Virus record (IMG/VR): IMGVR_UViG_3300044695_005296 | Coordinates: 1 to 58,493 of that record | Length of the DNA stretch: 58,493 nucleotides | Direction: 5' to 3' (one strand) | Source of the DNA: a virus | Part shown: piece by piece, positions 1,197 to 50,051 of the stretch | Numbering within the stretch: the first letter of the stretch is position 1 | How the letters are laid out: every line of letters starts with the position of its first letter | Notes under the pieces: model-generated | The model's input: only the letters and a program-made list of their open reading frames with translations | Databases searched by the model: none | Told to the model about the DNA's origin: nothing | Translations under genes and position numbers: made by a program

Positions 1197-1633
1197 CTTC
1201 GGCAGAGCAGAGCTTTGAGGCAACGTTCGCAGAGATTTACTCCGAGGCATACGCACTTCTTGTGCGAAAGCAAGAGCGATACGGAGACTCCAACATCCAG
1301 CACCTTGGGATTCACGGGGTGATTAGCCGAATTGCGTACGACAAGATCGAGCGCGCTAAGCGCTTTCTTAATGGCAAGGTTGTTGACGGAGAAGTGATCC
1401 TTGACCCGCTGCCAGATGGTGGCGACGAATCTCTTGCCGACACTATGCTAGATATTGCAAACTACGCGCTCATTGCGGTTGCGCTACAGCGCTCTAAGTG
1501 GGGCCGACCACTAGACGGCCTCACGGCAGAGCTTCATCGTTTTGAACAGGAGAAGAAGGCGCCACGAGGGGATGCACCCAATCTTTCGCTGGCAAACCTT
1601 AGGGTGAATGTGATGGGAGCAAAGAAGAAGTGA
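1166..1633 (+). CDS. DUF1599 / Nmad1-like protein, 155 aa
   Basis: The TTG at 1166 follows AAGGAGG by four bases, so this start is well supported although rare. The middle of the protein (residues ~30-115) has the pattern expected of the DUF1599 family, also called nucleotide modification associated domain 1: ALLVRKQERYG, then a GVISRIAYDKIERAKR helix, then a LADTMLDIANYALIA helix followed by KWGRP. Family members are phage and bacterial proteins linked by context to modified-nucleotide metabolism; no enzymatic activity is visible here. It is directly followed, with a GTGA overlap, by a glycosyltransferase gene, a pairing that fits a role in DNA base modification or its control. Confidence 0.6.
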   Translation: MANPPKGRVVASAEQSFEATFAEIYSEAYALLVRKQERYGDSNIQHLGIHGVISRIAYDKIERAKRFLNGKVVDGEVILDPLPDGGDESLADTMLDIANYALIAVALQRSKWGRPLDGLTAELHRFEQEKKAPRGDAPNLSLANLRVNVMGAKKK

Positions 1634-2466
1634 GCAAGAAGTCAAAGCGAGTACGAAACCCTAGGTCATTTGACTCACAAAGTATTGCTGCGCCTCAAAA
1701 GCGCCTTGGCATTTGTGTCGCAACGCCGACACTTGACGGCCGACTTCATGCTGGGTGCGTGGCAACCGTTATGCAATTGCAAAAGCTTTGCATTGAAGAA
1801 GGCATTTCCTTTACGTGGAAGGTGCTTGCTGGAAACTCTATTCTTCCCTTGGCGCGCAACGAGCTTGCTAAGCAGTTCCTGGACACAAAGGCAACGCACT
1901 TGTTTATGATTGACAGCGACATCCAGGTTGATCCAAGGCACATCTTGTATCTTCTGAGCCATGATCGAATGGTTAGTGCGCTTCCGTGCTCCAAGCGGGA
2001 AGTTCTTTGGAATCGCCTGGGTGAATTTATTTCTGCATACCCAAACACGAGCCTAGAAATGTATCCAGCCCTTATTGCGGAAGGCAACTTCTCAACAGAA
2101 GAGGACGTCTTCAAGGTGGATGAGTTTGGCTTTGCAAAGGTGCTAAAGGTGGGCACGGGCGCTATGATGGTCAAGCGGGAAGTGTTCGAGAAGATGATTG
2201 CAGAAAGCCCTGACAACTACTTCAACACAACGCAGGGGAAGCTTCACCAGTTCTTTAGCTACTCGCAAGACAACGAGACCAAGACTCAATACGGAGAGGA
2301 CTACACTTTCTGCAACACCTGGAGAAAGCTTGGTGGCGAGATTGATTTGCTGGTAGCGGCCAAGACCAAGCACCACGGACAATTAGCTATTGAGTTTAAC
2401 TGGAAGGGTATTGCCGAAACAATTACGGAATTTATGGCAGGGAAGGAGTCAAAGGATGCGGTCTGA
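1630..2466 (+). CDS. GT-A fold glycosyltransferase, 278 aa
   Basis: The GTG at 1630 overlaps the previous stop (GTGA). After a short basic N-terminus, residues ~27-35 (GICVATPTLDG) begin a nucleotide-binding Rossmann-like half, AGNSILPLARNELAK is the typical acceptor/donor helix, and FMIDSDIQV carries the metal-binding DxD motif. Further on, YGEDYTFCNTWRK and KTKHHGQ match the late catalytic segments of phage GT-A enzymes. It likely transfers a sugar to a virion protein, DNA base or host surface; the acceptor cannot be told from sequence. Its neighbour is the DUF1599-like gene, and a second, unrelated-looking glycosyltransferase lies at 52989-53756. Confidence 0.75.
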   Translation: MSKKSKRVRNPRSFDSQSIAAPQKRLGICVATPTLDGRLHAGCVATVMQLQKLCIEEGISFTWKVLAGNSILPLARNELAKQFLDTKATHLFMIDSDIQVDPRHILYLLSHDRMVSALPCSKREVLWNRLGEFISAYPNTSLEMYPALIAEGNFSTEEDVFKVDEFGFAKVLKVGTGAMMVKREVFEKMIAESPDNYFNTTQGKLHQFFSYSQDNETKTQYGEDYTFCNTWRKLGGEIDLLVAAKTKHHGQLAIEFNWKGIAETITEFMAGKESKDAV

Positions 2467-2959
2467 TTTACTTGCGCAAATCGCCCAATCTGTTTTCCCA
2501 AACAACTCGCGGGGCAGCGCAGCAAAGATGCTTGCCAATCGGATGAACGAGATCCTTGCCCCAGATCATCGGCGCTCGCCGCGCACGGTTGAGGCTTATG
2601 CAAGCAATCAGCGCGCCATCCCCGCAGACTACTCGGTGGCTGTTATTGAGTACGTAAAGAATAACCACCCGGAGTTGGTTGACATTATTGCCGAGGCAGA
2701 AGAGGACAGCGGCGCTGAGGTCAGCAGCGTTATCTCCAAGATTGACACGTTAACTGAAACGGTAGACAAGATTGAGAAGTCTGTTAACAAGCTGCAAGGA
2801 GCGACGCAAGCCGCTGGCATGTTGCTTGCTATTCGCAAGATGTGCGAAGATTGCGTTGGCGGCACGGCGGATAGCAAGGAAAGCTATTGCCACTGGAGTA
2901 ATTGTTCTCTTCGGGAATACAGTGATATGCGATTGTCACCCAACGCTAAGAGGATGTAG
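2456..2959 (+). CDS. Hypothetical DNA-binding-like protein with Cys motif, 167 aa
   Basis: The ATG at 2456 sits after GGAAGGAG and overlaps the glycosyltransferase gene by 11 bases; a longer reading from 2390 has no ribosome-binding site. The N-terminal third looks like a small helical DNA-binding region (MLANRMNEI, RRSPRTVEAY). Residues ~85-125 form a heptad-like coiled coil (VISKIDTLTETVDKIEKSV). The C-terminus carries MCEDCVGG, then YCHWSNCSLR, a C-x2-C-x-GG ... C-x4-C pattern that recurs in small phage proteins and probably binds zinc. A dimeric regulator is plausible but unproven. Confidence 0.6.
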   Translation: MRSDLLAQIAQSVFPNNSRGSAAKMLANRMNEILAPDHRRSPRTVEAYASNQRAIPADYSVAVIEYVKNNHPELVDIIAEAEEDSGAEVSSVISKIDTLTETVDKIEKSVNKLQGATQAAGMLLAIRKMCEDCVGGTADSKESYCHWSNCSLREYSDMRLSPNAKRM

Positions 2960-3195
2960 TGGTCTGGTTTCCCGCTGTTTACACAACACTAGAAGACGGA
3001 CAGTGCTCTTCTGAGGTGTATGACAGCGAAACAATGATGGTCATTGGTTCCATTCAGGCGGGAGATCCAGAAAAAGTCTATGCCGAGACAGAAAGACTGC
3101 TGTCGTTCGTAAAGTATGTGTCAGATTCTCCTTCGCTATTGAAAGGATATGTGCTGAATGGTCAAGAAGAAGGCAAAGATGAACCAGGACTATGA
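2959..3195 (+). CDS. Hypothetical protein, 78 aa
   Basis: The GTG at 2959 shares one base with the preceding TAG stop, typical of translational coupling in this strand. The product is acidic in its centre (DPEKVYAETERLLSFV) and has no recognised motif, signal peptide or membrane segment. It overlaps the following gene by 38 bases in another frame. Retained because it lies in a continuous run of coupled small genes. Confidence 0.5.
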   Translation: MVWFPAVYTTLEDGQCSSEVYDSETMMVIGSIQAGDPEKVYAETERLLSFVKYVSDSPSLLKGYVLNGQEEGKDEPGL

Positions 3196-3574
3196 TCACG
3201 ACTGGCTGCGCGGCTGGCTAAACGCCTCGTACAGTTCAACAGCAAGGACGCTTGGCCTGCTCCCAGAGCGCTGGACCCCAGGGGCAGAAGCCGCACTGGA
3301 GGAAGAGATTAGTCGAAACATTGCAGACATTTTACTTATTGGTAATTATGAGAAGTGCGAAATTGAAGGGGCGATCCTGCCGCCCTCTGAGGGGCATTCT
3401 AATTGGCGATTTATTGCAGTTGTCAAGTTGAACAAGATTCCATTTACCTGTATGGTGGGTTCCAAGAGCCCTGCTGGGCTCATTGATGCGGCAAGCGCTT
3501 GGGCCAACCATGTTGTTGCTCGCAAGTCACAACTGACAAAGAAGAAAATGAAAGAGGAGACAAGTGTCGATTGA
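3158..3574 (+). CDS. Hypothetical protein, 138 aa
   Basis: ATG at 3158, with a second ATG at 3179 preceded by AAGAAGG as a possible alternative. The sequence looks like a soluble alpha/beta protein: WLRGWLNASYSSTARTL, then PGAEAALEEEISRNIADIL, then a beta-rich middle with HSNWRFIAVVKLNK, and a Lys-rich C-terminal tail. I do not recognise the family. It is embedded in the run of coupled small genes and overlaps the following gene by 11 bases. Confidence 0.6.
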   Translation: MVKKKAKMNQDYDHDWLRGWLNASYSSTARTLGLLPERWTPGAEAALEEEISRNIADILLIGNYEKCEIEGAILPPSEGHSNWRFIAVVKLNKIPFTCMVGSKSPAGLIDAASAWANHVVARKSQLTKKKMKEETSVD

Positions 3575-3872: not shown

Positions 3873-4068
3873 CACCATTGGGTACGCATACACCCAGCCG
3901 CAGGACCTTTGGGTTTGTTCGGTTTGTGGGGATGAGCGGCAAAGCGAAGCAGTCCAATCTACCCGCAGCAACACGCTGCATCAAGATTTTAAGCACGCCT
4001 CCTGTGTGGTGTGCCGGAGTACGCGGCTGTTTCGCGTAAAAAGGAGGGAAGATGAACGAGAAGTCTAG
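3856..4068 (+). CDS. Zinc-ribbon-like small protein, 70 aa
   Basis: Uses a TTG at 3856 inside the previous gene, with GAGG upstream. The protein has two Cys-x2-Cys pairs, VCSVCGDE and SCVVCRST, about 25 residues apart, the expected spacing for a single zinc ribbon. The C-terminus is basic and charged (VKRREDEREV) and overlaps the start of the next gene. A role in nucleic-acid binding is plausible but not shown. Confidence 0.5.
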   Translation: MSKKSDTIGYAYTQPQDLWVCSVCGDERQSEAVQSTRSNTLHQDFKHASCVVCRSTRLFRVKRREDEREV

Positions 4069-4387
4069 TGTTCCTGCTTACGATGTCTTGCTGGCTGACG
4101 GCTGGGAGGACTGCATCATTGGCTTAGGGTGGCAATTTAATAAGCCGCTTATTGTTTACAGCAAGAACAAGATTCTGGCAAAGCTTGTTAATGAGTTTGC
4201 TGCGGATGCCCGCGACAACAAGGAGTTTGACGACAACGACGTCTACCGTGGGGACCGAGACTTTTTTGCTGAGGCAGAGGAATACTTTTCGTTTAACATC
4301 CAAGGCGCTTGGGTGGGCGAGTCAACCCCAGTCTTTGTTGACGAAGATGCCAACACCCCCGAAGCCATTAACGAGCAGTTGGCATGA
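4052..4387 (+). CDS. Hypothetical acidic protein, 111 aa
   Basis: ATG at 4052 with AAAGGAGGG directly upstream, the strongest ribosome-binding site in this gene run. The product is strongly acidic (DARDNKEFDDNDVYRGDRD) and begins with a likely beta-rich segment (ILLADGWEDCIIGLGW is the approximate pattern, read as DVLLADGWEDC). No family recognised. It overlaps the following protease gene as ATGA. Acidity could indicate DNA mimicry or simply a soluble accessory protein; nothing decides between them. Confidence 0.6.
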   Translation: MNEKSSVPAYDVLLADGWEDCIIGLGWQFNKPLIVYSKNKILAKLVNEFAADARDNKEFDDNDVYRGDRDFFAEAEEYFSFNIQGAWVGESTPVFVDEDANTPEAINEQLA

Positions 4388-5316
4388 TCCGCTTTATCCT
4401 TGCGGCTGCCCTGTTGGCAGTTCCAAACACTCCTGACCCAAACCAGTTCTCCGTTGCTGGGTGGGAGCACGACCGAGTCAATCAGCGCGCTCACATCATG
4501 GATGGCAAGAGCTGGAACGGCAAGGAGTACGGCGCTGGCATTACCGTCTATGTAGTAGACAGCGGCGTATACGACTCCAAGATGTTCAACGGTGGCGTTG
4601 AGCAGGGGTACAGCGCATTTTCCGACGGGAAGGTTGCGTGTGGCGCCTACCACGGGAGCATGATTGCCTCAATTATTGCGGGTCGAAACATCGGCCTTGC
4701 GCAAAAGGCAAAGATTGTTTCTGTGCGCGTTATGAATTGCGCGGGTAAGGGAAACCCAAAGAACATCATTGCTGGGCTAAATTGGATTTTGCAAAATGCT
4801 GAACCAGGAACATCCGTAGTAAACATGTCGGTTAGCGGGGCGGCAACCCAGTCCCTTGACGACAAGGTAAACGAGATGGTTGACGCTGGCTTCCCAGTAG
4901 TTGTTGCCGCAGGAAACGAAGGGCGAGACGCCTGCCGATACAGCCCAGCGCGAGCGGCTAACGTTGTTACAATCGGCTCTTCCACCCGATTGGACCTGCG
5001 GTCCAGGGCAAGCAACATCGGTCCATGCATTTCCCTCTATGCCCCTGGGGAGAACCTTACCGTGTATCACCCTCTTAACGGGCAGATGAGGCAAACTGGT
5101 ACCTCTGGTGCTGCGGCATTCGTAAGCGGCGCTATTGCTGCAACTGCGTCTATGTATGGCCTAGAAACATATGACGCAATGACCGTGTTGTTCTACGGAT
5201 CAACTGCTGGGGCAATTTGCTGCGGCTACCGCACCACTTCAAGCGACCTGCTCTACCTCAATACTGACCTGTACAACATCAGTGACGGGGAGTGGTGGGC
5301 TGACTGGTGGGACTAG
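4384..5316 (+). CDS. Secreted subtilisin-like serine protease (S8), 310 aa
   Basis: ATG at 4384 overlaps the previous stop. Residues 2-13 form a short hydrophobic signal-like segment (RFILAAALLAV). The catalytic triad is complete: Asp59 in YVVDSGV, His90 in AYHGSM and Ser241 in GTSGAAA, with the oxyanion Asn178 in AAGNEG. Order and spacing match peptidase family S8, closest in style to the proteinase K group; the usual Met-Ala-Ala-Pro after the serine is changed to Gly-Ala-Ala-Ala. Several Cys residues suggest disulfides, which fits export. No obvious propeptide domain is present. It ends convergently with the large terminase gene, sharing CTAG. Secreted subtilisins are unusual in phages; targets could be host surface proteins or virion proteins. 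Confidence 0.9.
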   Translation: MIRFILAAALLAVPNTPDPNQFSVAGWEHDRVNQRAHIMDGKSWNGKEYGAGITVYVVDSGVYDSKMFNGGVEQGYSAFSDGKVACGAYHGSMIASIIAGRNIGLAQKAKIVSVRVMNCAGKGNPKNIIAGLNWILQNAEPGTSVVNMSVSGAATQSLDDKVNEMVDAGFPVVVAAGNEGRDACRYSPARAANVVTIGSSTRLDLRSRASNIGPCISLYAPGENLTVYHPLNGQMRQTGTSGAAAFVSGAIAATASMYGLETYDAMTVLFYGSTAGAICCGYRTTSSDLLYLNTDLYNISDGEWWADWWD

Positions 5317-6740
5317 AAGAACCTTCTGCCAGCAGTAAAGTAGAAAGAATTACCGCTTAGGTCTGCCGCATACACCAGCGCATCGACAAGGTCGTCGTGC
5401 TCCCCGTTTGGGAATGAGAGCATCTCATGCTCCAGGCTGTCAATCCCTGGAGCCCCGTTAAGGTGGAAAACTTTCCCCGCCTCATATCGTGCGGCAAGCG
5501 CGCGGCTTCTGCTTACCTTGTCCTTGTCCGGCCGAATGGCGCGAGCAGGAAGGCTGGTAGTGCCAAGGATCTCCCGAACAAACGTGCTCTGGTGCTGCAC
5601 GGCCTCAATGTTGAGCGACTCAATAAATCGTGGCTCTTCCGCCTCGTAGTTAAGACCACGAAGGCTGAGCATTCTCTGCGGCCAAAGGATCTTGGGGCCC
5701 TTGGAGCTGCCAATCTCCCCGTGCCGCGTAATGCCAGTCAGCCACTCCTGGTGACCCTCGTTGATCCGCTCCTTCCAGGCGCCAATCACGTAGAGATTGT
5801 GGTCGTCGTCCTCTAGGACTTCTACTGCAGTCGTATAGTCGCTGCGCTCGCTAATGGACGAAGCAAGGTCAACACCAATTCTCCTGGCGCCTTGCGGAAG
5901 TTTGTCTGTGCGCTGAAACCAGTCGTGGCGGAAGATGTTTCCACCCATAGAGGTAACGTCATTTTGGAACTGAAGCATAAAGATTGGGGTGCCGAGCTCT
6001 TCCTTCTTCTGGTTGAGCGTATCAACGGTGTACATTTCTGGCCAAAGAGGTTGGTTTTCCTCTAGCGCCCTTCGCTGATACGCCTGAATCCCCTTGCGCA
6101 TAAGCTCGGCATAGAAGTCATCTTCGTGCCAGCGCGTACCCACGTACCACTTCTTTGAACCAGGAACAAGCATTGGGTCAACAACTTGCCAGTACGTATC
6201 TGAGGCCTTTTGTCGTTGCCCAGCAGTAGCGTTCTCCTTCATGCCAACCATGTCGTCTGCAAACAACAAGTCAAGGCGGGCTCCTGGCTTAATAGATCCA
6301 AGGCCATCAGCAAAGCATGTGGCATCTTTACCCATGTTGACGCCCTTAATAGTCCAAGTTTCGTCGGTCCACTTGTTTCCAACCACGCCGTCGGCTGCCC
6401 AAGGGAACACTTCGGCGAAGAGCGGGCTCTCTATAAGGGTCTTGATAGCGCGGGATCTTGACATGGAGTCTGCAAGAACGGCTGTAAGGATGCCGATACG
6501 AATGTTTCCCTTGGTCATGCCAATGATTCGCGCAGCACGGAAGATTAAAGCAGTAGTCTTTGCATGTCCACGGGGCATGAGCACTAGTGCGCGGTCATGG
6601 TTGTCCATAAACTTTTCCATCTCTCGCAAGTGCCTAGGAAATACTAAGCCGCTCATGTACTCGGCAAATGCCGCATCTGAGGTTGCGGCCTTCTTGCGTA
6701 GCCAATCTCGGTATTCGCTGTTGCTAATACTAAGGCTCAA
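5313..6740 (-). CDS. terL: Terminase large subunit, 475 aa
   Basis: Packaging motor ATPase and nuclease. Walker A-type motif MPRGHAKTT at residues 55-63, Walker B LLFADD at 158-163, followed by a likely coupling segment around YVGTRWHEDD. The C-terminal RNase H-like nuclease shows Asp291 in IGVDLASS and the late acidic EHDDLVDA near residue 450. Length is normal for the family. The start overlaps the small subunit gene by 11 bases, so they are coupled. It drives DNA into the prohead through the portal, which here lies far away on the other strand (50858-52987). Confidence 0.95.
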   Translation of the reverse strand: MSLSISNSEYRDWLRKKAATSDAAFAEYMSGLVFPRHLREMEKFMDNHDRALVLMPRGHAKTTALIFRAARIIGMTKGNIRIGILTAVLADSMSRSRAIKTLIESPLFAEVFPWAADGVVGNKWTDETWTIKGVNMGKDATCFADGLGSIKPGARLDLLFADDMVGMKENATAGQRQKASDTYWQVVDPMLVPGSKKWYVGTRWHEDDFYAELMRKGIQAYQRRALEENQPLWPEMYTVDTLNQKKEELGTPIFMLQFQNDVTSMGGNIFRHDWFQRTDKLPQGARRIGVDLASSISERSDYTTAVEVLEDDDHNLYVIGAWKERINEGHQEWLTGITRHGEIGSSKGPKILWPQRMLSLRGLNYEAEEPRFIESLNIEAVQHQSTFVREILGTTSLPARAIRPDKDKVSRSRALAARYEAGKVFHLNGAPGIDSLEHEMLSFPNGEHDDLVDALVYAADLSGNSFYFTAGRRFF

Positions 6741-10471: not shown

Positions 10472-10657
10472 ATGACAAAATCACAATCAGAAATTATTTT
10501 GGATCGTCTTGATCGCATTCAGCGAGACATTGACGCGCTCAAAAACGAAATGGCTGAAACGAGGGGCGCTTTTCGACTTGCAAAGTTTGTCCTTGCCATT
10601 CTCGGACTTTCAGGAGTTGGCGGACTCATTACGTGGCTATCGGGGCAGGGACAATGA
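10472..10657 (+). CDS. XhlA-like small membrane protein, holin-class candidate, 61 aa
   Basis: ATG at 10472 after GGAGGG; an upstream in-frame start at 10445 lacks a site. The N-terminal 30 residues form an amphipathic coiled coil ([19 protein letters not shown]) and residues ~42-57 form one membrane helix ([18 protein letters not shown]). This arrangement resembles XhlA-type proteins that act with holins and endolysins. It overlaps the next gene by ATGA. The endolysin candidate is on the other strand, 2.7 kb away. Confidence 0.55.
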
Positions 10658-12189
10658 ATACTAGGTTTCTTACTATCCTTGCTTCTATTTGGCTTATTGC
10701 AGCCACGCTTGCGTACAGCGTCATTGCCTCGCCAGTTTCTGGCGCGCAAAGCAACTACGTAGACGCAACCAAAGACTTCTGGATTACCGTCCCCGAAGCT
10801 GGGTCGCTGCACCTTTGGACCGACCTGTGCGACGACAGCACCGCCCCTTGGTGCCCCGGCACGGTTGACTCCATGCTTTGGCTGTACGACAGCAACGGCA
10901 CTCTTCTCGCTGCCAACGACGACTCGTACACGGATCACACTGGCGGCTACTCTCTTGCCTCAACCATCATTATCACCGTAGACGCCGGCGAGTATCGTGT
11001 GCGCGCTGGGGTGTGCTGCGGCGATCCTACGGCAGACCGCTTCTACGGCAATCACTACTACCTCATTAGCAACTTTGACGCTGAGCTTGCTCCTGGAACG
11101 CCGTCTGCAACGTGGACGCCAACGCCTCAGCCAACTCCCACGCCCACACCAACTCCTACCCCGACACCAGAGCCAACGCCTACGCCTGTGCCAGACCCAT
11201 ACCTCAACGCCCCTACCGGCCTTATGGTCACCGTGTACACAGATGGCAACGTCTATCTGACGTGGAACGCCCCAGAGGCAAGCGGTACCGACGTTGAGCG
11301 ATACGGCGTGTTCTGGACCACTGGGGATTTTGCTGGTTGGGCTGCCGCCTCCAGCGAAACCAATATGGGCATTGCCAGCAACGTCTTCGTTATTACGGGC
11401 GGCGTTGACCAAACGTACACATTCTGGGTAAGGGCTGACAACGACACGCTTAGCGTGTATTCGCCTATCTCAGGCACGGTGTCCGTGTTTGTGCCAGCCC
11501 CGCCGCCACCAACCCCAAGCCCAACGCCTGAACCGACCCCTACGCCGACCCCAGAGCCCACACCTGAGCCGACCCCTTCTCCTACCCCAGAAACCCCAGC
11601 ACCAAGCCCTAGCGTGGCTCCTACGCCCACGCCAGAGCCTTCTGTAAGCCCGTCGCCGGTGCCAACACCGACGCCAACCCCGGAGGTAACAAATGAGCCG
11701 ACACCGGACCCGACTGCCACACCCGAGCCGACGCCCGAGCCAACAGAAACCCCTACGGAGTCTCCTGCCCCTTCTGTTGATCCCAGCCCTGTACCTACTG
11801 ACACACCTGGACCAATTGATCCGGGCGCTGCAGTAGAGGCTGTTACGGAAGCCGTAGGAGAGGCTGTCGCGGCAGTCGGAGAGGCAGTAAGCGCTGCTGT
11901 TGACACTGTTGCAAACCTTGGTAATGATATTACCGAAGAAGAAAAGGAAGAGGCCCGCACGGTTGTTGGGCCCGCAGTAATCATGACGACTATTGCACAG
12001 GCCGCAGTGTCAGCAGCTGCCGCAAAAAGTGCCACCAATTCTGGTGGTGGCTTTAGCGGTGGTGGTGGAGACGGCAAGAGCAAGGGTCGGGCGGGTGGTC
12101 GTCGCCAGGGGGGCGGCGGCGCAAAGCCGCAACAGGCTAAGGCGCAAGGAAAAACAGCCCAAATCGGGCAGAGGAGAGGTCTAAGATGA
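10654..12189 (+). CDS. Secreted PT-rich multi-domain surface protein, 511 aa
   Basis: ATG at 10654 overlaps the previous stop. Residues 1-32 look like a signal peptide ([16 protein letters not shown] then ASPVSGAQ). An N-terminal beta domain (~35-145) contains [14 protein letters not shown] and [13 protein letters not shown] and resembles the pre-peptidase C-terminal (PPC)-type sandwich. A proline-threonine linker, a fibronectin type III-like domain ([18 protein letters not shown]) and a much longer P-T-E-rich linker follow. The C-terminus has an Ala/Val-rich helix, then Gly/Lys/Arg-rich low-complexity sequence. It could be a host-displayed protein or a virion decoration. PT linkers are typical of exported proteins of several bacterial groups, so host origin is possible. 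Confidence 0.7.
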
Positions 12190-13315: not shown

Positions 13316-14053
13316 TTACTTCTTGATGCCAGTGCCGCCGCAGGCTGGGCAAGGAACCGGCTTAACCGGAACTGGCGCAGGCGCTGGGGCTGGTGCTGGA
13401 GTTGGTACTGGCGCAGCAGCCACAACGGTGCCCGCCTCAATGATGATGGTGTGCTTGAATGCTGGGGCAACGTGCTTCTTTGAGAGGCGCTTGCTGTCGC
13501 AAAGCTTCAGCAGGGTCTCCTCGCTGATTCGCACGCCGAACTGCTCCTTGCCCTTGCCGGATCGCGTTGGGCATGCCCACTGCCATCCGAGCTCTGGGTC
13601 CCACACTGCGGCAGTCATGTGACCGTAGGTTCGGTTAGGCTGCTTCTGCTTAACCCACCACCAACGCTGCCACTTTGCATGCCACTCGGACACTTCAAGG
13701 TCCTTTGGGTAGCCAAATGGCTGCTCCACCCAGACGCCAATTGCAGCGCCCTTCTTGGCGCTAGTAATGACGTCGTTCCAGTCCTTGGCCCAGCGCGCCT
13801 TAGCGCCAAGCACCCGGGCGGTCTTAATAAGGTCGCCAAGGCTTGAACCGTTGTCGGACACGCCCTGCTTCTCAACAAATCCAGTAGCCTTTGCCTTGGC
13901 GGCAATGCCATCCCCTGCGGAAAAGTCTCCGCCTGGGGCGTACTTGTTCACCCAAGAAACGCATGCTGCTATAGACGATGGACCGCAGTCATCAAGAATG
14001 CCGCCCTTCTCCTCGTGGTCAAGCTGTGACTTAACCCTAAACTGAACTCCCAT
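13316..14053 (-). CDS. C39-like cysteine peptidase, endolysin candidate, 245 aa
   Basis: ATG at 14053 follows GGAGG. Cys23 in DDCGPSS starts a helix, as in C39-type papain-like folds, with His145 in YGHMTAAVWD and Asp152 as likely triad members. A Trp-rich middle segment (KWQRWWWVK) may contact the substrate. The C-terminus is a Pro-Ala-rich linker (VPTPAPAPAPAP style) that ends in CPACGGTG, a short zinc-knuckle-like tail. Its position before a holin candidate and after fibre genes supports cell-wall lysis by peptide bridge cleavage. No muramidase or amidase domain was seen in the window, so this is the best endolysin candidate. Confidence 0.6.
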   Translation of the reverse strand: MGVQFRVKSQLDHEEKGGILDDCGPSSIAACVSWVNKYAPGGDFSAGDGIAAKAKATGFVEKQGVSDNGSSLGDLIKTARVLGAKARWAKDWNDVITSAKKGAAIGVWVEQPFGYPKDLEVSEWHAKWQRWWWVKQKQPNRTYGHMTAAVWDPELGWQWACPTRSGKGKEQFGVRISEETLLKLCDSKRLSKKHVAPAFKHTIIIEAGTVVAAAPVPTPAPAPAPAPVPVKPVPCPACGGTGIKK

Positions 14054-14115
14054 AAGAACCTCCATACTGAATTGCCCTCTCGTGGGCTTACAGTATTTTA
14101 CCTGGAGGTAGTTAT

Positions 14116-23400: not shown

Positions 23401-25366
23401 CAGAGATTGCAATGCTGGCCCGGAATGTACTTTGCAGCCGGTGTTGCTTTGGTGCTCCGTTATTAATGATGACTTTTGGAACATGCTTGATAACGCTAGT
23501 GTTGGTCGCCACAATAGGATCATAGGCATACGCATTAAGGTTTGGCGAAAACTCCGCAACGAAATCCGCAACTGTCGTAATGCGATCAATGGCGTTGCTG
23601 TCTTCGTAGGCTTGTGCTGGGTAGCCAGGAAGCCACTGTCGAAGGATTGGGTTGTAGCGAAGGGTTTCTATGTGGTCAACGTTGTCTAAGTAGTTAATTC
23701 CAAGACCGTCGTAGTCTTCGTTGTATGGGTCCGTAGATCGAATAGACTCAAAGATAGAGGTAGTGATTGCTTGAATTTCAAGAGGGTGTTCCTCATCGTA
23801 ATAGAGCAAGCGCGCCTCCGCCTCTCCGCCAGAGCTTTCATACGCAATTTTAAAATTGTTTGCGTCGGCAACGTCTGCAACTGTTGCTGAGTACCAAGTC
23901 CCATCGGCGGTTGTAACGGCAATAAAACTACCAGTCCACGGGGCGAGCTGATTGTAGGTCTCAGGAGATATTAATACGGTATCCCCGCCAGACAGACCAT
24001 GCGACGTGCCAGTCGTAAATGTGGCTATGGTTGTGCTCTCTTTTCTCGCAACCGGATCGTATCCAGAAGCAAGGAATGGGGAAACAATATTCGCGTTAGT
24101 AAACGGGGTGGAGGCGGTTGCGGATGGGGTCGCTACGCGGTGAACAAAGAAAAACTTGCGAGAGTTTTCAATAATGTCAACAATGTATTTTGTGTTGGAA
24201 AGTTTAGCAATGCCGTTCCATAGGCTTGTGTCCGTGTGCGATTGATTGTTTACCTTTAACGCCTGCCCGACTTGCAGCTGATGGTCTTCCGCGCTGTCAA
24301 CTACGACCTCATGATTCCACAGCTTGAACTGCTGGCCATCCGCAATCATGGCCCCAGCATTTGCGGAATCGCACACCTGGTAGTAAATACCAGAGGAGTT
24401 TGTACCCTCCCAAAGCCCAACAACTTGATACTCATAGCCGCTGCTGCTGTATTTAAATCTTTCGTTACGGCGGATTCCGTGAGTGGTTGTGGTTTCGGCT
24501 TTTTGCACTCCGTTGTCTGAATCATATGAGACCTGGGTAAACGTGTACGAGGGAACATCAGGCGTGCTAATAGAGATTCTATTGACGCCTATTCTTCCCG
24601 CCTCATACAGCTCGCCACCAACAATCATCTCCCAGCCGTAGGTGTCCTGAGGTACGCGGTAGCGATCAATAACGCGCTCGTCTAGCAGGGCGGTATAGTC
24701 CGCACACGTGAGCTGCTGCAAGATCACCCCGCCAGCGCGCTTCTCCTCTACGGACATCATGACGCCACCGAAGAGCAGCTCGCTTACTTGAACATAAAGT
24801 ATTGCGGTATTGGTACCAGAAGCAACAGCGGTCTGGGAAATGGTTCTGGACGTTGCTTCGAGGTAGCTAATTGTGGTGCTGGTAACGGCGGTAATCGTTC
24901 GTTGGCCGCCAAGCATTAAGGGGTCTGGCGAACGCGCGGTGTCCCCAGCCAGGGTAACCACCAACGAGTTGCCCACAGTAAGCGTGTGGGACTGATTGAG
25001 TGTGAGCGTTACCGTAGTGCCGCTTTGGCTGTAGTGCGTTACTGCGTAGTACTTAGATAGGTCGCCATACGACTGAGATATCTTTATCTCGCTGCGTAGC
25101 GGGATCTCAAACCTAAACGTTGGGTCTAGCAGCGCTTCGGCAATAGACTCAGCTTCAGTTGCAGCGTACTCGTTCCAGCGCTTGCCAGAAAAGGGAAATA
25201 GCGTATACAGGCCAATGTCCGCATTGGCAGTTGATCCGTCAGCACTTGATGTAAATTCAAAAGCGTCGGAGTCTACTCGACCCGTGACGTCGTAAAACGC
25301 CAACGGGTCGGTAGCACCTTCAAACCTGGGCTGTATTTCTACTTTCAGGTCTTTTGTTATATTCAT
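17432..25366 (-). CDS. Giant tail-tip protein, 2644 aa
   Basis: ATG at 25366 overlaps the tape measure stop (ATGA). Starts with a head region of tail-hub style (DLKVEIQPRFEG), continues with many repeated small beta domains that use similar phrases (HAFSSGDRVSIPG, HPFSLGDYVNIYP, SHGLSGGDTVLISP), and has a LamG/concanavalin-type domain (GSFTKYSIDD, FDGYIGEIIGFDR, LLHKYGLVS) around residues 1720-1940. The end has a fibronectin-like domain (FDLSWSYPFGD). Gene order (tape measure, this, S74 fibre) matches tail-tip or central-fibre proteins of long-tailed phages. Its carbohydrate-type LamG domain suggests host-surface binding. No peptidase motif was seen. Confidence 0.75.
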   Translation of the reverse strand: MNITKDLKVEIQPRFEGATDPLAFYDVTGRVDSDAFEFTSSADGSTANADIGLYTLFPFSGKRWNEYAATEAESIAEALLDPTFRFEIPLRSEIKISQSYGDLSKYYAVTHYSQSGTTVTLTLNQSHTLTVGNSLVVTLAGDTARSPDPLMLGGQRTITAVTSTTISYLEATSRTISQTAVASGTNTAILYVQVSELLFGGVMMSVEEKRAGGVILQQLTCADYTALLDERVIDRYRVPQDTYGWEMIVGGELYEAGRIGVNRISISTPDVPSYTFTQVSYDSDNGVQKAETTTTHGIRRNERFKYSSSGYEYQVVGLWEGTNSSGIYYQVCDSANAGAMIADGQQFKLWNHEVVVDSAEDHQLQVGQALKVNNQSHTDTSLWNGIAKLSNTKYIVDIIENSRKFFFVHRVATPSATASTPFTNANIVSPFLASGYDPVARKESTTIATFTTGTSHGLSGGDTVLISPETYNQLAPWTGSFIAVTTADGTWYSATVADVADANNFKIAYESSGGEAEARLLYYDEEHPLEIQAITTSIFESIRSTDPYNEDYDGLGINYLDNVDHIETLRYNPILRQWLPGYPAQAYEDSNAIDRITTVADFVAEFSPNLNAYAYDPIVATNTSVIKHVPKVIINNGAPKQHRLQSTFRASIAISGGELLVTVANNFVEGDKFYLRKVDDVLTGDIPAYRIFEINENTTSSVIHATINSADAVFTLGGSATAEIVMVPVHNAQAGTLKFYTSKHHAIKPGETIRLNNFKINETQQFEGGFDNTFSVEDVSAKLEDNTKDFSSISLIVGSEDPGMEVFPSRETPSRVTTFEEDQKYLESRTNRYRIIHARKESGIGELTAIIAEVIVAYELVAANQIKITLNVEADSFTTNQVVRILGLIPPFSGLYSVSAVSGKTVTLTSYGSANIFTAESAAVSGTPTWDTTTKRLTVTATAHPFSLGDYVNIYPNSGSGSVIHREKVVAKATNTFTIARPFNPGLGALTNYRAAAGYVAAFTAQSYSAVNSVGGVTTFTAAAHAFSSGDRVSIPGNVYCTNAKVTSVTKSNVLVETGADVGVATGSLVLGEVPEQTTVSSLQRSFDTNFKRDVLQLSTTDSHGLVRNPTSIIDIVPLNVIQALEAEGGVATILAVNSGQDFVVGADSTGTLTSAGTPFDMIIDKTFGNFGADTSSALGIVVSRIGEGMVEHEAITVSGVGGSLFDTSVPRRIGGIKHYGVSSNYNAMSLYWQANGIVTLYFADTLTEELKDAFSSGRSVYLDLSTTNLGYENKFAGIRTIINAGSVLGNDEHNDQRGKTEGKPYIQWLQDQPLTAEIGAYTVAAGSVVSADIIEYVDTQKGDSIPYRVADFERKTGSVTKVSQSSINDWSYLNGVFRFTTVKKHGRIAGDQVYFASIGEMTRAGQWNFNNVAPTTAKKKITIVGNAGNVFGVSVGDGSYKIKSIRCTNPTTQKDAFEVELSEDCAELYFPTLGFTLKGIGGVAGVSLANNINLSGIGRINARKFTFETSFGVGGIAANGVMSATSAATITFKAELLNSFATKPQATFTGKRPSTTKTTNWIDSTGASTLTTPFTVKATDGTSDKNYANDLKIPKDGSGALAEMYYYEYLAKARNGSFTSTNGTYLVETDEPHNLGDRQPGIVFTPSAGSPINLSAIDDTAKQLTVTGSNTFTFQSGSLTVGSPTDCTILTRAAYVPGATAPTMPRNPDVFIGGRKALNFVKSKYNLLRTDTLYPSFKDYSVGTDSLDYHQWWTFVIRPNTTTSDMRILQRGDKSTYMAFGINSSNHPFVQLCVSAGSFTKYSIDDITIEDEEECVLQFVVNVNRSTRIASITAYKNFDETGTATSGVLYQSTGIEIDHDSLDSVGYGPGTVVVGAGIASLNTYEEPFDGYIGEIIGFDRLPASSPKNESELLRAWLLHKYGLVSLIDPDYEPDYRDINNVPNQRLAEASQVKDTQFGGRTLRQVLDFISKNSGAQFWVNKNKELEYRKISTANLVENPMFENDRGTGSVKRWNGTTENHTLAKDTAGEFDRTAGPWGYGYAMKSSGTSATSVYSDFINIGPSEETLAAGDLFFVSAYVKSSDTSRMAVRVHFYSAATNTVGSGYANSYVDLYSGWANNDEWRKMWKIVKIPVGSSKFTVGLLALAGGASETHYWTDIRAVKLTGEFGFADEGNYSNDVLLLNSGETSSDMPMATYPFESPDNIRSAGASANRLYLYTTIPDSDENGITTTAISSNQELMEYTFDHVQGVWNSHGKIVEGSKAEESARTLKEVSGKAEAFFSESGQASGSYQFEHPNNGLPGLLTPGSVIPYLWSEVDIWEPMIVKSQSTKLIGPEMYHTVTLQQEPDYQKNALVLIGRRVIAVDLASASPATEKPPAPQRFIVEATDPDGFANTIETIFDLSWSYPFGDATTRGVETGGFEIQVRTRKRKLAQVSKKGSSIKDGEKLIAFAASGGNPQTLVTVYGKYTGMVIGSPVTISGAPENLGNKTVPSGLTLNGTFRIQDKIQNGFKYYVMTPEDTNEATEEQFKSTPAGFILGKSAPDLNVAYKTALKGAYGPWLTDTKTTLKTGKGTTTRASWNAAALAVDGDDGAGDLNIDQDYQFRIRAIAQFGTATTPVYNYSDWVQYPMADDAVTVGGKEVL

Positions 25367-28300
25367 CAACTTGGCCTCATGAAGCCTGCCGCACGGAGGG
25401 TGCGTACCTGTGCCGAACTTACCTTCTCGGCAAGTTTATCAATATCTGCGGCATCCGACACAACAGGGTTGTTAATGGTGACGGACGCATTGATTGTCGC
25501 GCCTCCGCCAGCCATTCGCAAGTCCCCTGGAGCCTGCAACGCTTGCAGGCCAGTATTTGGCAACATGTAGCCACTGCTGTCAGGGATCATAAGCTCTGGC
25601 CCACGCTCACCAACAAGGTACGGTGTGTACTGCTTGATTGGCCCACCGAAGGCTCGCGCAACTGGCTCCGTTGACTTTCCGCCAACCATCGTTGAGCCAG
25701 TGCCGCCCTTAACAGGATTCCAGTTTTTTGGCATGACCTTTGACCATTCCCTAAAACCAGTAAACCCTGGCAGCATTTCGGTATAGTTTTTAACCCACCT
25801 AGGTTCCATTCCCATAAGCGAGAACAGCTCTTCGCTTGACCTAAATTTGCCAATATTCTCTGGTCTCCACATAAATGGAGGAATAATCATTCTTTGGGCA
25901 GCGAGCATCTTGTCTTGTGCTTGCTCTTTTTCGGCAGCGGTTAAAAGCTCTGTGTCAAAAAACGCTCGGCCAAGATTAAACGGTATTCCATAATCTTGCT
26001 TATTTTGCTTAACCAGGTCTTCGTAAGAAGTTCCGCCTGGATCACCCTTACCAAAAATGCTTTCCCATCCCATTTGGCCAAGATAACCAATGAATGGCGC
26101 AACTTTTCCGACAACGTCGGCAATGCCACCAGGCAAATCCCAAAGCATGCCGCCCGTCTTGTTTCCAACGTGATACGCGCCCGTTGTTAGCGCAAGAGAA
26201 GCAAGCAGGGAACCACCCAGCGTTTCTGGGGCAACTGCTGCCAGTTTTACGGCCGTAATCGTTTCTGCCAACGCGCCAAATCCAACTCTAGCAATTGAAC
26301 GACCGAGAGGCTCTTTCAGCTTGTCAAGTTCTTCTTTAGTTGCTTCAGACAAAACAATTGGCGGACCAGGGTTGAAATCGCCAGAGGCAAGGCCCTCTGC
26401 AATTGTGTAATCCTTCAGGGTGTCATACTTTTTATTTGGATCAAAGCTATCAAAAATTCCCGTAATTGACTCAGTAAAATTAAGCGGGCCACTGCCCAAC
26501 TGTAGATTTTCGTTTAACGTGGCACGCGCTAGTTCAGATTCAAGAGTCCCGTTTCTTTCAAACTCTCTTTTCTTATTTACCCAATAAGCTTCACTCATTT
26601 CCTCAATTCGAATTTGCTCTAGGCGCTTTTCCCACCAATTTCCGTCTTTCTCTTGCGCCTCGTAAAGGTCTGTTGCCCACCCAAAAGAGCTAAGTCCAAT
26701 AGAACCCTTCTTCCAGAATGGGTACATTTTTCGTTCTGCTTTTCGCAGCAGGTTAGAGTGCTTAAAGAAATCTTCAAGTATGCCACGGCCTTTTCCGCCC
26801 ACGCCCTCTGGGTAGAATTTGGCGCCCCTGCTCTGCGGAGAAACGTTTGGATCTCCAACAGTTTTTACAATTCCGAGTTCGTTAGGTTGCAAATGCGGCA
26901 GCAACCTGCCTGGCTGCAGCAGCAAATCGGCAAAAGGAGTTCCCTTAATGAAAGGAAGCTTTGCAAGTTGGGCAAACCAGCCATACTTGTATTTCCAACC
27001 AGTTCCGCCCCTTACAACCGCACCAACTTCACCACCGTGATTTGGTCCTGGCTTTAGCTGCATTCTTACTGGTCCGCCAGCAGCTTGTGTTACCTCGTCG
27101 CCAAATTGTCCGCCTGGAACCTCGTCAAGAAGCCTGGTCTCTCCTCCTTCACCTGGCCCAAATGGCGCAAAGATTTGCGTTCTTGCACCAGGAATTGGAC
27201 GAGATTTTCCTGTTTTTGGATCAACCGTATACGGGAATTCAACGTTTGCCGCAATATCCCCAAGGCTGTCAAGCAGCATTGGGTAAAGCTTCCAGTTGAA
27301 AGGAATTGTGGCGGTATCTGGGTCAATTATCGGCGGCTCTGGTGGATCAATTACTGTTGTAACCTTTTCACAATAGTAGCCGCCCTCGCTCCAAACCTTA
27401 ATATACCCAGGTGGGCAATCCCACGTTGGCGGCTCTGGCGGAATTGGTGGCTCTGGGGTAATTGGATCGTCCATTGGGATAGGCCCACGGCCCCTACCAA
27501 CGTACCCGCCCGCTGCCCGACCCATGACTGGGCTCCAGCCCATTCGTCCGCCACCGCGAATCTTGCTTGCTACATAGCGAGCGTAATTCTTTGGATAGCG
27601 ACGCATCATTTCGTTCTTCTGCGCTTTTGTGTTATTTGGGTTAGCCATAAACTCGTTGAAAGAGTTTTGCTGGAAGCCCATAGGGTCGCCAACAAAGCCC
27701 AAGCTTCTCTGGAAGCTATCTGTTGGGCTCCAGAACGGATCGTCTTTCCCTACGGGTCCGACATATCCGCCGCCAGCTCGACCAGTTACACCAACCAGAC
27801 CGCCGTAGTATCGTCCCTGCTTGCCCGCCTTAAGCGCGCCAGAAGAGGACTGCATGCTACTTGGAAGCTGGTGGTTTGGCGTGACGTAGCCGCCACCATT
27901 TTGGAACATGGTGAGCATTTCTGGCCCACGCTCCCCAACAATGTATTGACCAGCGCCAACAGGTCCGCCGGCCGCCATTGGCTGCCAGTTCCATGCAGTG
28001 CCGCTCCATACCCAGTCACCGTTTGTTGCATACGGTGGCTTATATGTTGGCTTAGGCGGCTTTGTGACCGTTCCTGAGCCAGTAGATGGGGCAAAGCCTT
28101 CCCCGCCCGTTCTGGCAATCGTTGGAAGATCGCCAAACTTCTTATAAATCGCGTCAAATTGTGCGTACAAACCATCAAATATTTCGTTGAACTGTGAGCG
28201 CTGGATGAATTCATCATAGCCATCGAAAGGCATATTTTGTAGTTTTACCGCAAAATCTCCAAGGTTATCAATAACGCCCGCTGCTTCTTTCGCTGCTTGG

Positions 28301-48467: not shown

Positions 48468-50051
48468 TTACTCCTGAGTCTCCAGCACACGCTGGATGTA
48501 TGGGCTTAGCCAAGGTGCGGATGTTGCCATCTCGCCCGTGGCGCGCTTGATGGCTGGAACGTGACTGACGGGGACGTCAATCAGTCTACCAACCAGGTCC
48601 AATGTCTTTTCCAACTCCAGCTCGACCTTGGCCTTTGCGGCAATGACTTCGGCAACGCTCTTCTTCAGGGCTGTTACCTCTGCCTGTGCTGCAAGTGCTG
48701 CATCTAGCGCAGACTTGGCAATTTCGGCGACCTCGGCAAGAGCTGCTGTATCGACCGACTTATCATCCGCAGCAGCTTCTGGCTCTGCGGCATGTTCAAT
48801 TTCCGTTGCTGGCGCTTCTACCGGAGCCTCTGGCTCAACGGCTGGCGCCTCAACGGCGGGGGTCTCTTCGACCTTCTCTTCTGCTGGGGCCTCTGGCTCC
48901 ACAGCATTTGCCGCAGCTTCAGCGGCCTGTCGGGCCTGCCGGGCGGCAATCTCTAGGTCGGTATCCTTGACAACTTCTGCGCCAAGGGCCTCTAGGGCCA
49001 CAACGTGCGCAGGCTCGTCCTCTGCTGCAGCCTCTTCTGCTGGTGCGTCTACGGCCGGCTCTTCAGCCGGAGCCTCTACTGGCGCCTCTGGGGCGACTTC
49101 TGCTGCTGGCACTACGGCCTCTTCAGCAATAATCTCGTTCTCGTTTTCCACGTTCTTTACCTCCAATGGTTCGCCCTGTGGGCGCTGATCTTGCTCGATG
49201 CCCGAGGTCAGTACTTCTGCCTCTCCTGGCTCTTCAACTTCATGCGTCTCGACAACAAGGCTGTCAAAAGACTTTGCGGCACGAAGGGTGGACATTTTGT
49301 GCCCAACAATTGTGTCCGTTGCCTTGTCATCTTTATAAACGCGAATAAGGACAGCCGGATCGCCTTCCTCTGCGTTAATTGTAAACGAAGAACCAGGCAC
49401 CTTAACGCTGCCTTCGCGAACAATCTTAGTGATTTTTCCGCGAGCCGTTCCACCGCTAGAGCCCCAGCTGACCATATCGCCAACGCTAAAGTTGCCATGG
49501 GCCTTTTGCTCTTCGACAGCAGTGCTGCGAAGGCTCTTAACAGCGTTCTGTAGGTATGAGCGCTGGTTTGCTGGAATACCAACAACTGAGGCTTCCATCA
49601 ACTTGACGCTATCAATAACGTATGTCTCTTCCCCGGTTGACTTATCAACCTTTTTGCTTACTCTGTCAACTCTTGCGCCAATTGAAAGGCCAAGCTTGAC
49701 ACCACGCTTGATTGCGCGATAGGCACGAATTGCCTCTGGGTTCTCGTCCTCAGAAACAACAGATATATCGACGTCAAGGTCAAAGACCTCTTGGCCATCT
49801 TCGTCAATGCGCTTGACAATGCGAGCGTCCTTGACTGAGCCAAACAGGTCATCAGGGACCTGGTACTCGTGGTTGAGCCAAATGGTCATGTTCTGCTTTG
49901 CGGTTGCCTCCATGCTCTTTAAAGCAGATAGGGTCATCTCATCTCCGTGGAGGTCCCTAATCGTGGAAGAAGTGGTGCCGGTTACAAAACGGTCGCCGTT
50001 ATCAGCTTCGTAAGCCTTTAACGCATTTGTATAGATCTTGAAATCAGACAT
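48468..50051 (-). CDS. Prohead protease fused to tudor-like and scaffold regions, 527 aa
   Basis: ATG at 50051 after GAGGGG; the longer frame to 50120 lacks a site. Residues 1-175 match the HK97 prohead protease: His61 (WLNHEYQ), Ser123 (GLSIGAR) and acidic EAS at 154. Residues ~188-258 (VGDMVSWGSSGG, RGKITKI, DPAVLIRVY) match a DUF2945 / hypervirulence-associated tudor domain. Residues ~290-440 are Ala/Glu/Pro-rich, and ~440-500 form a coiled coil (EIAKSALDAALAAQAEV). So one chain combines protease, tudor-like insert and scaffold. The protease likely cleaves the capsid N-terminus and its own scaffold tail. Confidence 0.8.
   Translation of the reverse strand: MSDFKIYTNALKAYEADNGDRFVTGTTSSTIRDLHGDEMTLSALKSMEATAKQNMTIWLNHEYQVPDDLFGSVKDARIVKRIDEDGQEVFDLDVDISVVSEDENPEAIRAYRAIKRGVKLGLSIGARVDRVSKKVDKSTGEETYVIDSVKLMEASVVGIPANQRSYLQNAVKSLRSTAVEEQKAHGNFSVGDMVSWGSSGGTARGKITKIVREGSVKVPGSSFTINAEEGDPAVLIRVYKDDKATDTIVGHKMSTLRAAKSFDSLVVETHEVEEPGEAEVLTSGIEQDQRPQGEPLEVKNVENENEIIAEEAVVPAAEVAPEAPVEAPAEEPAVDAPAEEAAAEDEPAHVVALEALGAEVVKDTDLEIAARQARQAAEAAANAVEPEAPAEEKVEETPAVEAPAVEPEAPVEAPATEIEHAAEPEAAADDKSVDTAALAEVAEIAKSALDAALAAQAEVTALKKSVAEVIAAKAKVELELEKTLDLVGRLIDVPVSHVPAIKRATGEMATSAPWLSPYIQRVLETQE

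What the first reader, a model, noticed from the sequence alone, without database searches (positions are those of the whole stretch)
4384..5316. Phage-encoded secreted subtilisin
Complete catalytic set with a signal-like start and several Cys. Exported proteases of this family are rare in phages. The target may be surface proteins, competing phage receptors or virion proteins.
Basis: partly seen in the sequence, partly recalled or inferred. Interest (0 to 1): 0.55.

Follow-up and report, generated by a model that had tools for sequence, protein, structure and literature searches.

The report
Propeptide-less exported protease of phages
A group of tailed phages carries, as a standard gene beside its DNA-packaging gene, a proteinase K-like enzyme that looks built for export from the infected cell but lacks the folding helper such enzymes normally have; what it cuts is unknown.

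Summary
Window 4384-5316 (+) encodes a 310-aa S8 subtilase of proteinase K type with a complete catalytic set (D59, H90, N178, S241) and a hydrophobic, signal-like start. It is not a recent pick-up of this contig: in viral contigs, 77 of 80 kept homologous loci have it convergent, end to end, with a homologous terminase gene, and it occurs in 33 of 38 contigs with a terminase at 70% identity or more (4 end too early, 1 lacks it). The catalytic residues are invariant where covered, selection is purifying, and the clade is one supported group. Two features are unusual. No I9 propeptide precedes the catalytic domain, while the two best-scoring cellular relatives have one. A sister subclade shortens the Asp-His spacing from 30-31 to 11 residues, against 31-51 in 30 of 30 cellular loci. 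A separate S78 prohead protease exists, so head maturation is unlikely. Best reading: an exported protease acting on host envelope or surface proteins. Export is inferred; target and host are unknown. New variant of a known kind.

The parts
4384..5316 (+). S8 (proteinase K-type) subtilase, 310 aa, signal-like start, no propeptide
4384..4446 (+). signal-like N-terminus and short linker (residues 1-21); solved enzymes align from model residue 22-23
   Evidence: hydropathy, structural alignment
4558..4560 (+). catalytic Asp59 codon
   Evidence: invariant; coordinates
4651..4653 (+). catalytic His90 codon
   Evidence: invariant; coordinates
4915..4917 (+). oxyanion-hole Asn178 codon
   Evidence: invariant; coordinates
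5104..5106 (+). nucleophile Ser241 codon
   Evidence: invariant; coordinates
5313..5316 (.). CTAG that holds both stop codons: TAG of the protease (+, 5314-5316) and TAG of the terminase (-, 5315-5313)
5313..6740 (-). terminase large subunit, the conserved convergent neighbour
   Evidence: phrog_38 4.1e-66
4052..4387 (+). upstream gene overlapping by ATGA, phrog_13182 of unknown function; no I9 domain found in this record
48468..50051 (-). separate S78 prohead protease: head maturation is covered by another gene
   Evidence: PF04586 1.5e-07, above cut-off; phrog_80 4.8e-06

Best explanation
The gene encodes an active proteinase K-type serine protease that the infected host exports through its general secretion route. 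It folds outside the cytoplasm without an I9 propeptide, held by disulfides, and cuts proteins of the host envelope or surface during infection. The likely benefit is removal of surface proteins such as S-layer subunits, receptors or adhesins, which would ease release of progeny and keep them from sticking to spent cells. Shown by sequence and model: S8 fold, intact and invariant catalytic set, purifying selection, syntenic core gene of one phage clade, no propeptide, hydrophobic signal-like start, conserved cysteines. Inferred: disulfides, export, activity, surface target and the benefit.
For: Identity. Conservation: D and H in 51 of 51 frames that reach those positions, N178 and S241 in 53 of 53 (of 54 distinct frames; both counts include L169 and L170, which lie outside the clade). 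NG86 dN/dS 0.040-0.088 (YN00 0.051-0.107) in the 8 of 10 pairs that could be computed. Core gene: 33 of 38 terminase-anchored contigs, 4 too short, 1 lacking; 77 of 80 protease loci convergent with the terminase. One group in the tree: A+B 100/95, A 99/95, B 100/99. Export: hydrophobic N-terminus in 48 of 49 frames; many subclade B members follow it, by eye, with A-x-A-like sites and a Lys-rich linker. C86, C119 and C215 are invariant in the 22 distinct members. C184 is lost in 3 of 22 (L026, L028, L030), and all three have a new Cys nine residues on, as expected if the bond to C215 is kept. No propeptide: only 11-33 residues lie between the hydrophobic stretch and the W..DR start of the mature domain in 22 of 22, against 82 positions of the I9 model; PF05922 is absent from 6 of 6 phage proteins of both subclades and above cut-off in the two best cellular relatives. 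Not head maturation: separate S78 protease.
Against: No experiment, expression or proteome data. No signal-peptide predictor was available; the window's own start has no clear A-x-A site. For mesophilic bacterial subtilases the propeptide is described as an obligatory chaperone (PMC10580911, abstract seen), so a propeptide-less enzyme might fold poorly. The motif after Ser is unusual (GTSGAAAFV in the window; GTSMASPHV occurs in 1 of 55 rows, the outsider L170). L027 lacks the gene, so it is dispensable at least there. Divergence faster than the terminase is shared by other neighbours. The host is not known.
Confidence: 0.5

Rival explanations
1. Lysis accessory: the exported protease weakens protein layers or lipoproteins of the envelope only at the end of infection, like a proteolytic counterpart of spanins.
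For: Signal-like start; core gene. The phage's lysis set is poorly known: the candidate at 13316-14065 has only a sub-cut-off C39-like hit (0.041, 14.9 bits against 24).
Against: It is not beside that candidate; it lies about 8 kb away. One relative lacks it (L027).
Confidence: 0.2
2. Maturation protease for the phage's own exported or tail-fibre proteins, acting outside the cytoplasm, for instance on the exported-looking PPC-like stalk protein at 10654-12189.
For: That protein also has a signal-like start by eye and a weak PPC match (0.029, 15.7 bits against 25.9).
Against: The PPC-like gene is kept in L027, which lacks the protease, and gave no hit in subclade B loci, some of which may be too short to show it.
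Confidence: 0.12
3. Virion-borne protease used at entry.
For: Phages do carry virion enzymes (general knowledge); the gene lies next to the packaging gene; portal and tail-fibre genes lie on the same strand elsewhere in the contig.
Against: Signal-like N-terminus in 48 of 49 frames; its own block, genes 1-9, showed no recognised structural gene among those searched.
Confidence: 0.1
4. Nutritional auxiliary gene: a secreted protease that feeds the infected host or community with amino acids.
For: Enzymes of this type are secreted scavenging proteases in bacteria (general knowledge of the family).
Against: It is a syntenic gene in 33 of 38 related contigs, more than the patchy pattern usual for auxiliary genes (general knowledge).
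Confidence: 0.1

Closest known systems
Proteinase K-type bacterial subtilases (VPR 1s2n/1sh7, Serratia 2b6n, aqualysin I 4dzt)
   Same: Fold, catalytic residues and cysteine positions; 32-36% identity in the structural alignments.
   Different: Those are made as propeptide precursors (recalled; the two best cellular relatives found here show I9). The phage enzymes have none, and subclade B lacks about 20 residues between Asp and His.
S8 enzymes of isolated phages: Bacillus phage BSP12, jumbo phages Atu_ph07 and Phosso
   Same: Same domain; 26-31% identity to the window protein.
   Different: By eye none of the three has a hydrophobic start, and the jumbo-phage proteins are 1251 and 1287 aa. 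They fall elsewhere in the tree.
Subtilisin-like proteases annotated in published phages (Pectobacterium phage Peat1, PMC4536668; Paenibacillus larvae phages Jimmer1/2 gp42, PMC4168068; P. larvae prophages, PMC9341999)
   Same: The papers list a subtilisin-like or S8 peptidase among phage genes (passages seen).
   Different: No export, propeptide or function is discussed in the passages seen; their sequences were not compared here one by one.
T7SS mycosin, QhpE and other S8 models in NCBIfam
   Same: The S8 domain matches TIGR03921 (1.6e-29) and NF049966 (1.5e-12).
   Different: All far below the curated cut-offs (103 against 279 bits; 47 against 165), so not members.
S8 models of anti-phage defence systems (PADLOC 'subtilase' PDLC03014, IetS)
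   Same: PDLC03014 at 1.9e-12 (window) to 4.9e-18 (L044); IetS models 1.9e-08 to 1.3e-04.
   Different: The NCBIfam IetS-type model is far below cut-off (28.5 against 900 bits for L028). The neighbours are a gene of unknown function and the terminase; no search for a defence partner was made.

Membership tests
Peptidase family S8 (subtilases) | Asp-His-Ser triad in S8 order with oxyanion Asn in an S8 domain | tested here: met
   PF00082 above cut-off for 6 of 6 phage proteins; residues invariant where covered
Peptidase family S8 (subtilases) | Subtilisin fold | tested here: met
   Models with pLDDT 83 and 80; VIA Z about 40 and 37 to proteinase K-type chains
Proteinase K-type subtilases | Closer to proteinase K/VPR/aqualysin than to true subtilisins | tested here: met
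   phmmer 2.5e-47 for 2b6n and 1.7e-22 for proteinase K against 2.1e-16 for Savinase; VIA Z about 40 against 35
Proteinase K-type subtilases | N-terminal I9 propeptide in the precursor (usual in the family, not part of the S8 definition) | tested here: not met
   Absent in 6 of 6 phage proteins and in 6 of 6 phage records, all close relatives of the window; only 11-33 residues of room in 22 of 22
Proteinase K-type subtilases | Secreted through a cleaved signal peptide | tested here: inconclusive
   Hydropathy supports a signal in 48 of 49 frames; no predictor or experiment
Proteinase K-type subtilases | Proteolytic activity | not testable with these tools
   Needs an assay
Phage prohead (head maturation) protease | Serves as the head-maturation protease of the phage | tested here: inconclusive
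   A separate S78 protease at 48468-50051 is above the Pfam cut-off, which makes this role unlikely but does not exclude it
T7SS mycosin | Score above the NCBIfam equivalog cut-off | tested here: not met
   103.2 bits against 278.75
IetAS defence system | S8 component score above the curated cut-off | tested here: not met
   28.5 bits against 900 for L028; the window protein and L044 are not listed for that model at E<=0.01

The most novel reading that the evidence does not exclude
The clade has evolved a stripped-down proteinase K that folds and becomes active outside the cell without any propeptide (in subclade B even without the Asp-to-His excursion), and the phages use it as a receptor-destroying protease: it shaves host surface proteins so that progeny are released, do not re-adsorb to spent cells, and competing phages are excluded.
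Probability: 0.15. Interest if true: 0.8.

Novelty: new variant of a known kind. Interest (0 to 1): 0.5.

Why it matters
An exported protease kept as a core gene by a whole phage clade points to proteolysis of the host surface as a regular step of infection, which is not a textbook part of the phage cycle. A proteinase K-type enzyme without a propeptide, including natural variants lacking about 20 residues between catalytic Asp and His, is also a direct test case for the view that the propeptide is an obligatory folding helper, and could be useful as a compact protease.

Tried and rejected
Recent host gene pick-up: rejected. Propeptide in trans: no I9 match at E<=10 in 6 of 6 phage records, all close relatives of the window, several of them fragments; no subclade B record was in that search. 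The frames just upstream of the protease differ between subclades by eye. Some phage frames stay open far upstream of the hydrophobic stretch (W..DR at residue 111 of the open frame in L163 and L166, 91-92 in L132, L143, L144); I take the start to be just before that stretch, so no propeptide fits between it and the mature domain. Head maturation: S78 gene present. PPC-like stalk as obligate partner: kept in L027, which has no protease. Defence-system or mycosin membership: below cut-offs. One scan of genome contigs with the near-identical alignment gave 60 pattern matches but no relative, its patterns being narrow. Host: terminase relatives (E<=1e-30) were found in 6 of 177 genomes of one class and 3 of 301 drawn from the phylum of an 'Anaerolinea sp.' MAG; the three are among the six. 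On that MAG contig, genes that I read by eye as transaldolase, transketolase and citrate synthase share the contig with prophage-like genes. These relatives have no protease in the stretches searched (about 4.4 kb around each of six terminases and about 62 kb of the MAG contig); of three whole genomes searched, G266 had no S8 match, G006 one weak and G220 three, all on other contigs than the terminase. Their GC is 68-77% in those stretches against 50-54% for the phages, so a Chloroflexota host for the window phage is only a lead. No other phylum was searched with the genome search. Habitat: no call told where the contigs come from. 'Acinetobacter phage MD-2021a' records at 38.6% identity: one of the two was viewed and its protease lies among bacterial genes; looks like misassigned bacterial DNA. 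Literature: 10 searches, judged by titles and abstract starts, listed nothing on this clade; seven papers were opened (PMC7824862, PMC6802176, PMC4536668, PMC13118943, PMC4168068, PMC9341999: term passages; PMC10580911: abstract). Three of them list subtilisin-like or S8 peptidases in other phages. This is not proof of absence from print. Changed on checking: I first used strand as an argument against a virion role; portal and tail-fibre genes share the strand, so I dropped it and raised that rival from 0.08 to 0.1.

Full report
WHAT IS THERE. The open reading frame at 4384-5316 (+) encodes 310 residues; the frame is open for 314 codons. It is an S8 peptidase: PF00082 at 5.6e-26, PHROG 3677 at 5.4e-47, closest in the PDB to proteinase K-type enzymes (2b6n 2.5e-47, VPR 1s2n 2.8e-40, aqualysin 1.7e-38). 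AlphaFold gives pLDDT 83.0 and pTM 0.85. Foldseek puts 2b6n first (TM 0.80 on the query) and VIA-align gives Z about 40 over about 271 residues. Solved enzymes align from model residue 22-23, so only a hydrophobic start and a short linker precede the catalytic domain.

IT IS A CORE GENE OF A PHAGE CLADE. The contig holds terminase, portal, capsid, head-tail adaptor, tail-fibre and S78 prohead protease genes. Anchoring on the terminase, 38 viral contigs with a best segment at 70% identity or more were examined. The protease lies convergent to the terminase in 33; in 4 the contig ends inside the terminase gene (L031, L051, L053, L054); in L027 it is missing and the upstream gene ends 36 bases from the terminase stop, with no profile match anywhere in that 28-kb record. 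None of 41 loci with terminases at 24-32% identity had a hit, many of them short. A profile-guided scan of viral contigs confirmed 86 loci and kept the best 80. In 77 of 80 the terminase is convergent, at gaps of 0 (43), -28 (29), 4 (4) or -13 (1); L169, L170 and L172 show none, L170 and L172 being cut by the contig end. In the window both stops sit inside one CTAG. A tree of 83 rows groups all 47 clade proteins in it (100/95), split into A (18 rows, 99/95) and B (29 rows, 100/99). The S8 proteins of BSP12, Atu_ph07 and Phosso fall elsewhere. Six frames cut by contig ends were left out before the tree, and the program warned of long outer branches.

IT LOOKS FUNCTIONAL. Among 54 distinct frames from the 80 loci, D and H are present in 51 of 51 that reach the positions, and N178 and S241 in 53 of 53 (both counts include the outsiders L169 and L170). 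NG86 dN/dS between near relatives is 0.040-0.088 in 8 of 10 pairs (YN00 0.051-0.107); two pairs could not be computed, and dS is high in some. The terminase gives 0.008-0.039 over 6 pairs, so the protease is under purifying but somewhat weaker constraint. Beyond the near relatives it is 33-47% identical (end-cut fragments aside) where the terminase is 70-87%, but neighbours such as genes 8, 11 and 12 also diverge fast, so this is no special evidence of an arms race.

EXPORT. A simple rule (a 10-residue window with mean hydropathy of 2 or more and no charged, amide or His residue) is met by 48 of 49 frames with an intact 5' part; in the exception, L110, the chosen window held an Arg although a hydrophobic stretch follows (the 49 include L169, L170 and L172). 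Many subclade B members continue, by eye, with A-x-A-like sites and a lysine-rich linker. In 22 distinct members C86, C119 and C215 are invariant; C184 is kept in 19, and the other three (L026, L028, L030) have a Cys nine residues further on. In the phmmer alignment C119, C184 and C215 fall on cysteines of 2b6n, and C86 beside one; that these form disulfides in such enzymes is recalled. The window's own start lacks an obvious A-x-A site, so export is inferred, not shown.

TWO UNUSUAL FEATURES. First, no propeptide. Pfam I9 is absent from six phage proteins of both subclades and above cut-off in the two best-scoring cellular relatives, L199 and L200; the other two cellular proteins tested show only sub-threshold prodomain hits. 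Between the hydrophobic stretch and the mature W..DR motif lie 11-33 residues in 22 of 22 members, too few for the 82-position I9 model. The I9 search of 6 phage records, all close relatives of the window, was empty, while the same search rang in 5 of 14 control genomes, over the cut-off in 2. The abstract of PMC10580911 calls the propeptide of mesophilic bacterial prosubtilases an obligatory chaperone. Second, the Asp-His spacing is 30 or 31 in clade A and 11 in clade B (32 rows with 11, 10 with 30, 8 with 31 including the window, 2 outsiders with 33), against 31-51 in 30 of 30 cellular loci. phmmer splits a B member at this place in its three best PDB alignments. Its model (pLDDT 80.0, pTM 0.80) lacks the strand seen at 72-77 in the window model but still aligns over about 247 residues at Z 37.

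HOW IT MOST LIKELY WORKS. The gene is the last of a + strand block (genes 1-9) in which the family searches recognised no structural gene (the two small genes at 2959-3195 and 3158-3574 were not searched), and it overlaps its upstream neighbour by ATGA. Strand alone is no guide, since portal and tail-fibre genes are also on +. The phage has its own S78 head protease. The most economical reading is an exported protease acting on host envelope or surface proteins during infection. Whether the gain is release, prevention of re-adsorption, exclusion of rivals, lysis or nutrition is open; I give surface shaving the largest share. Steps shown: enzyme type, intact residues, conservation, lack of propeptide. 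Steps inferred: export, activity, target, benefit.

HOST LEAD. The only relative of the terminase found in the genome collection by a two-pattern scan is in an 'Anaerolinea sp.' MAG contig (54% identity; Chloroflexota by taxonomy), where prophage-like genes share a contig with bacterial metabolic genes that I recognised by eye. Terminase relatives occur in 6 of 177 genomes of that class; 3 of 301 genomes drawn from the phylum have one, and all three are among the six. These show no protease in the stretches searched; three S8 matches in G220 and a weak one in G006 lie on other contigs. GC is 68-77% there against 50-54% for the phages, so this is a lead only. That many Chloroflexota are monoderm, some with S-layers, is recalled; the papers listed were not opened. 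The habitat of the contigs was told by no call.

NOVELTY AND SCORE. S8 proteases in phages are known but uncommon: 33 of 50,697 records match at E<=1e-5, none over 80% or more of the query, and published phage genomes list some (passages in PMC4536668, PMC4168068, PMC9341999). Ten literature searches listed nothing on this clade. I rate it a new variant of a known kind, interest 0.5.

Noticed in passing
window 10654-12189 (+): Second exported-looking protein: signal-like start by eye, weak PPC-like match (below cut-off), Thr-Pro-rich stalk. Found in 10 of the terminase-anchored loci besides the window, L027 without the protease among them.
   Followed up: partly
window 25366-41646 (-): A 5426-codon open reading frame, probably a giant tape measure protein (by length and position; no family search was run on it).
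   Followed up: no
window 48468-50051 (-): S78 prohead protease carrying a Hva1_TUDOR Pfam match at residues 191-239 (3.5e-09, above cut-off); the matching frame is 672 codons in the L006 contig.
   Followed up: no
window 1630-2466 and 52989-53756 (+): Two glycosyltransferase-like genes: the first by eye (phrog_1574, unknown function), the second by weak, sub-cut-off CAP59 and GT2 matches.
   Followed up: no
L181:8302-9067 (record of L006): Two adjacent thioredoxin-like frames beside the SSB-like gene in the related 90.8-kb contig, recognised by eye.
   Followed up: no
L027:7404-7761: Natural protease-minus relative: the upstream gene's stop lies 36 bases from the terminase stop.
   Followed up: partly
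L015 (CAKLQH020000012.1): 'Acinetobacter phage' record whose protease lies among cysteine desulfurase, transporter and hydrolase genes and has a propeptide-like N-terminus by eye; looks like misassigned bacterial DNA.
   Followed up: partly
L169:6001-6747: A phage-record S8 protein (611-codon open frame) without a neighbouring terminase match that joins the base of the clade in the tree (92/88), perhaps an outside relative of the propeptide-less group.
   Followed up: no
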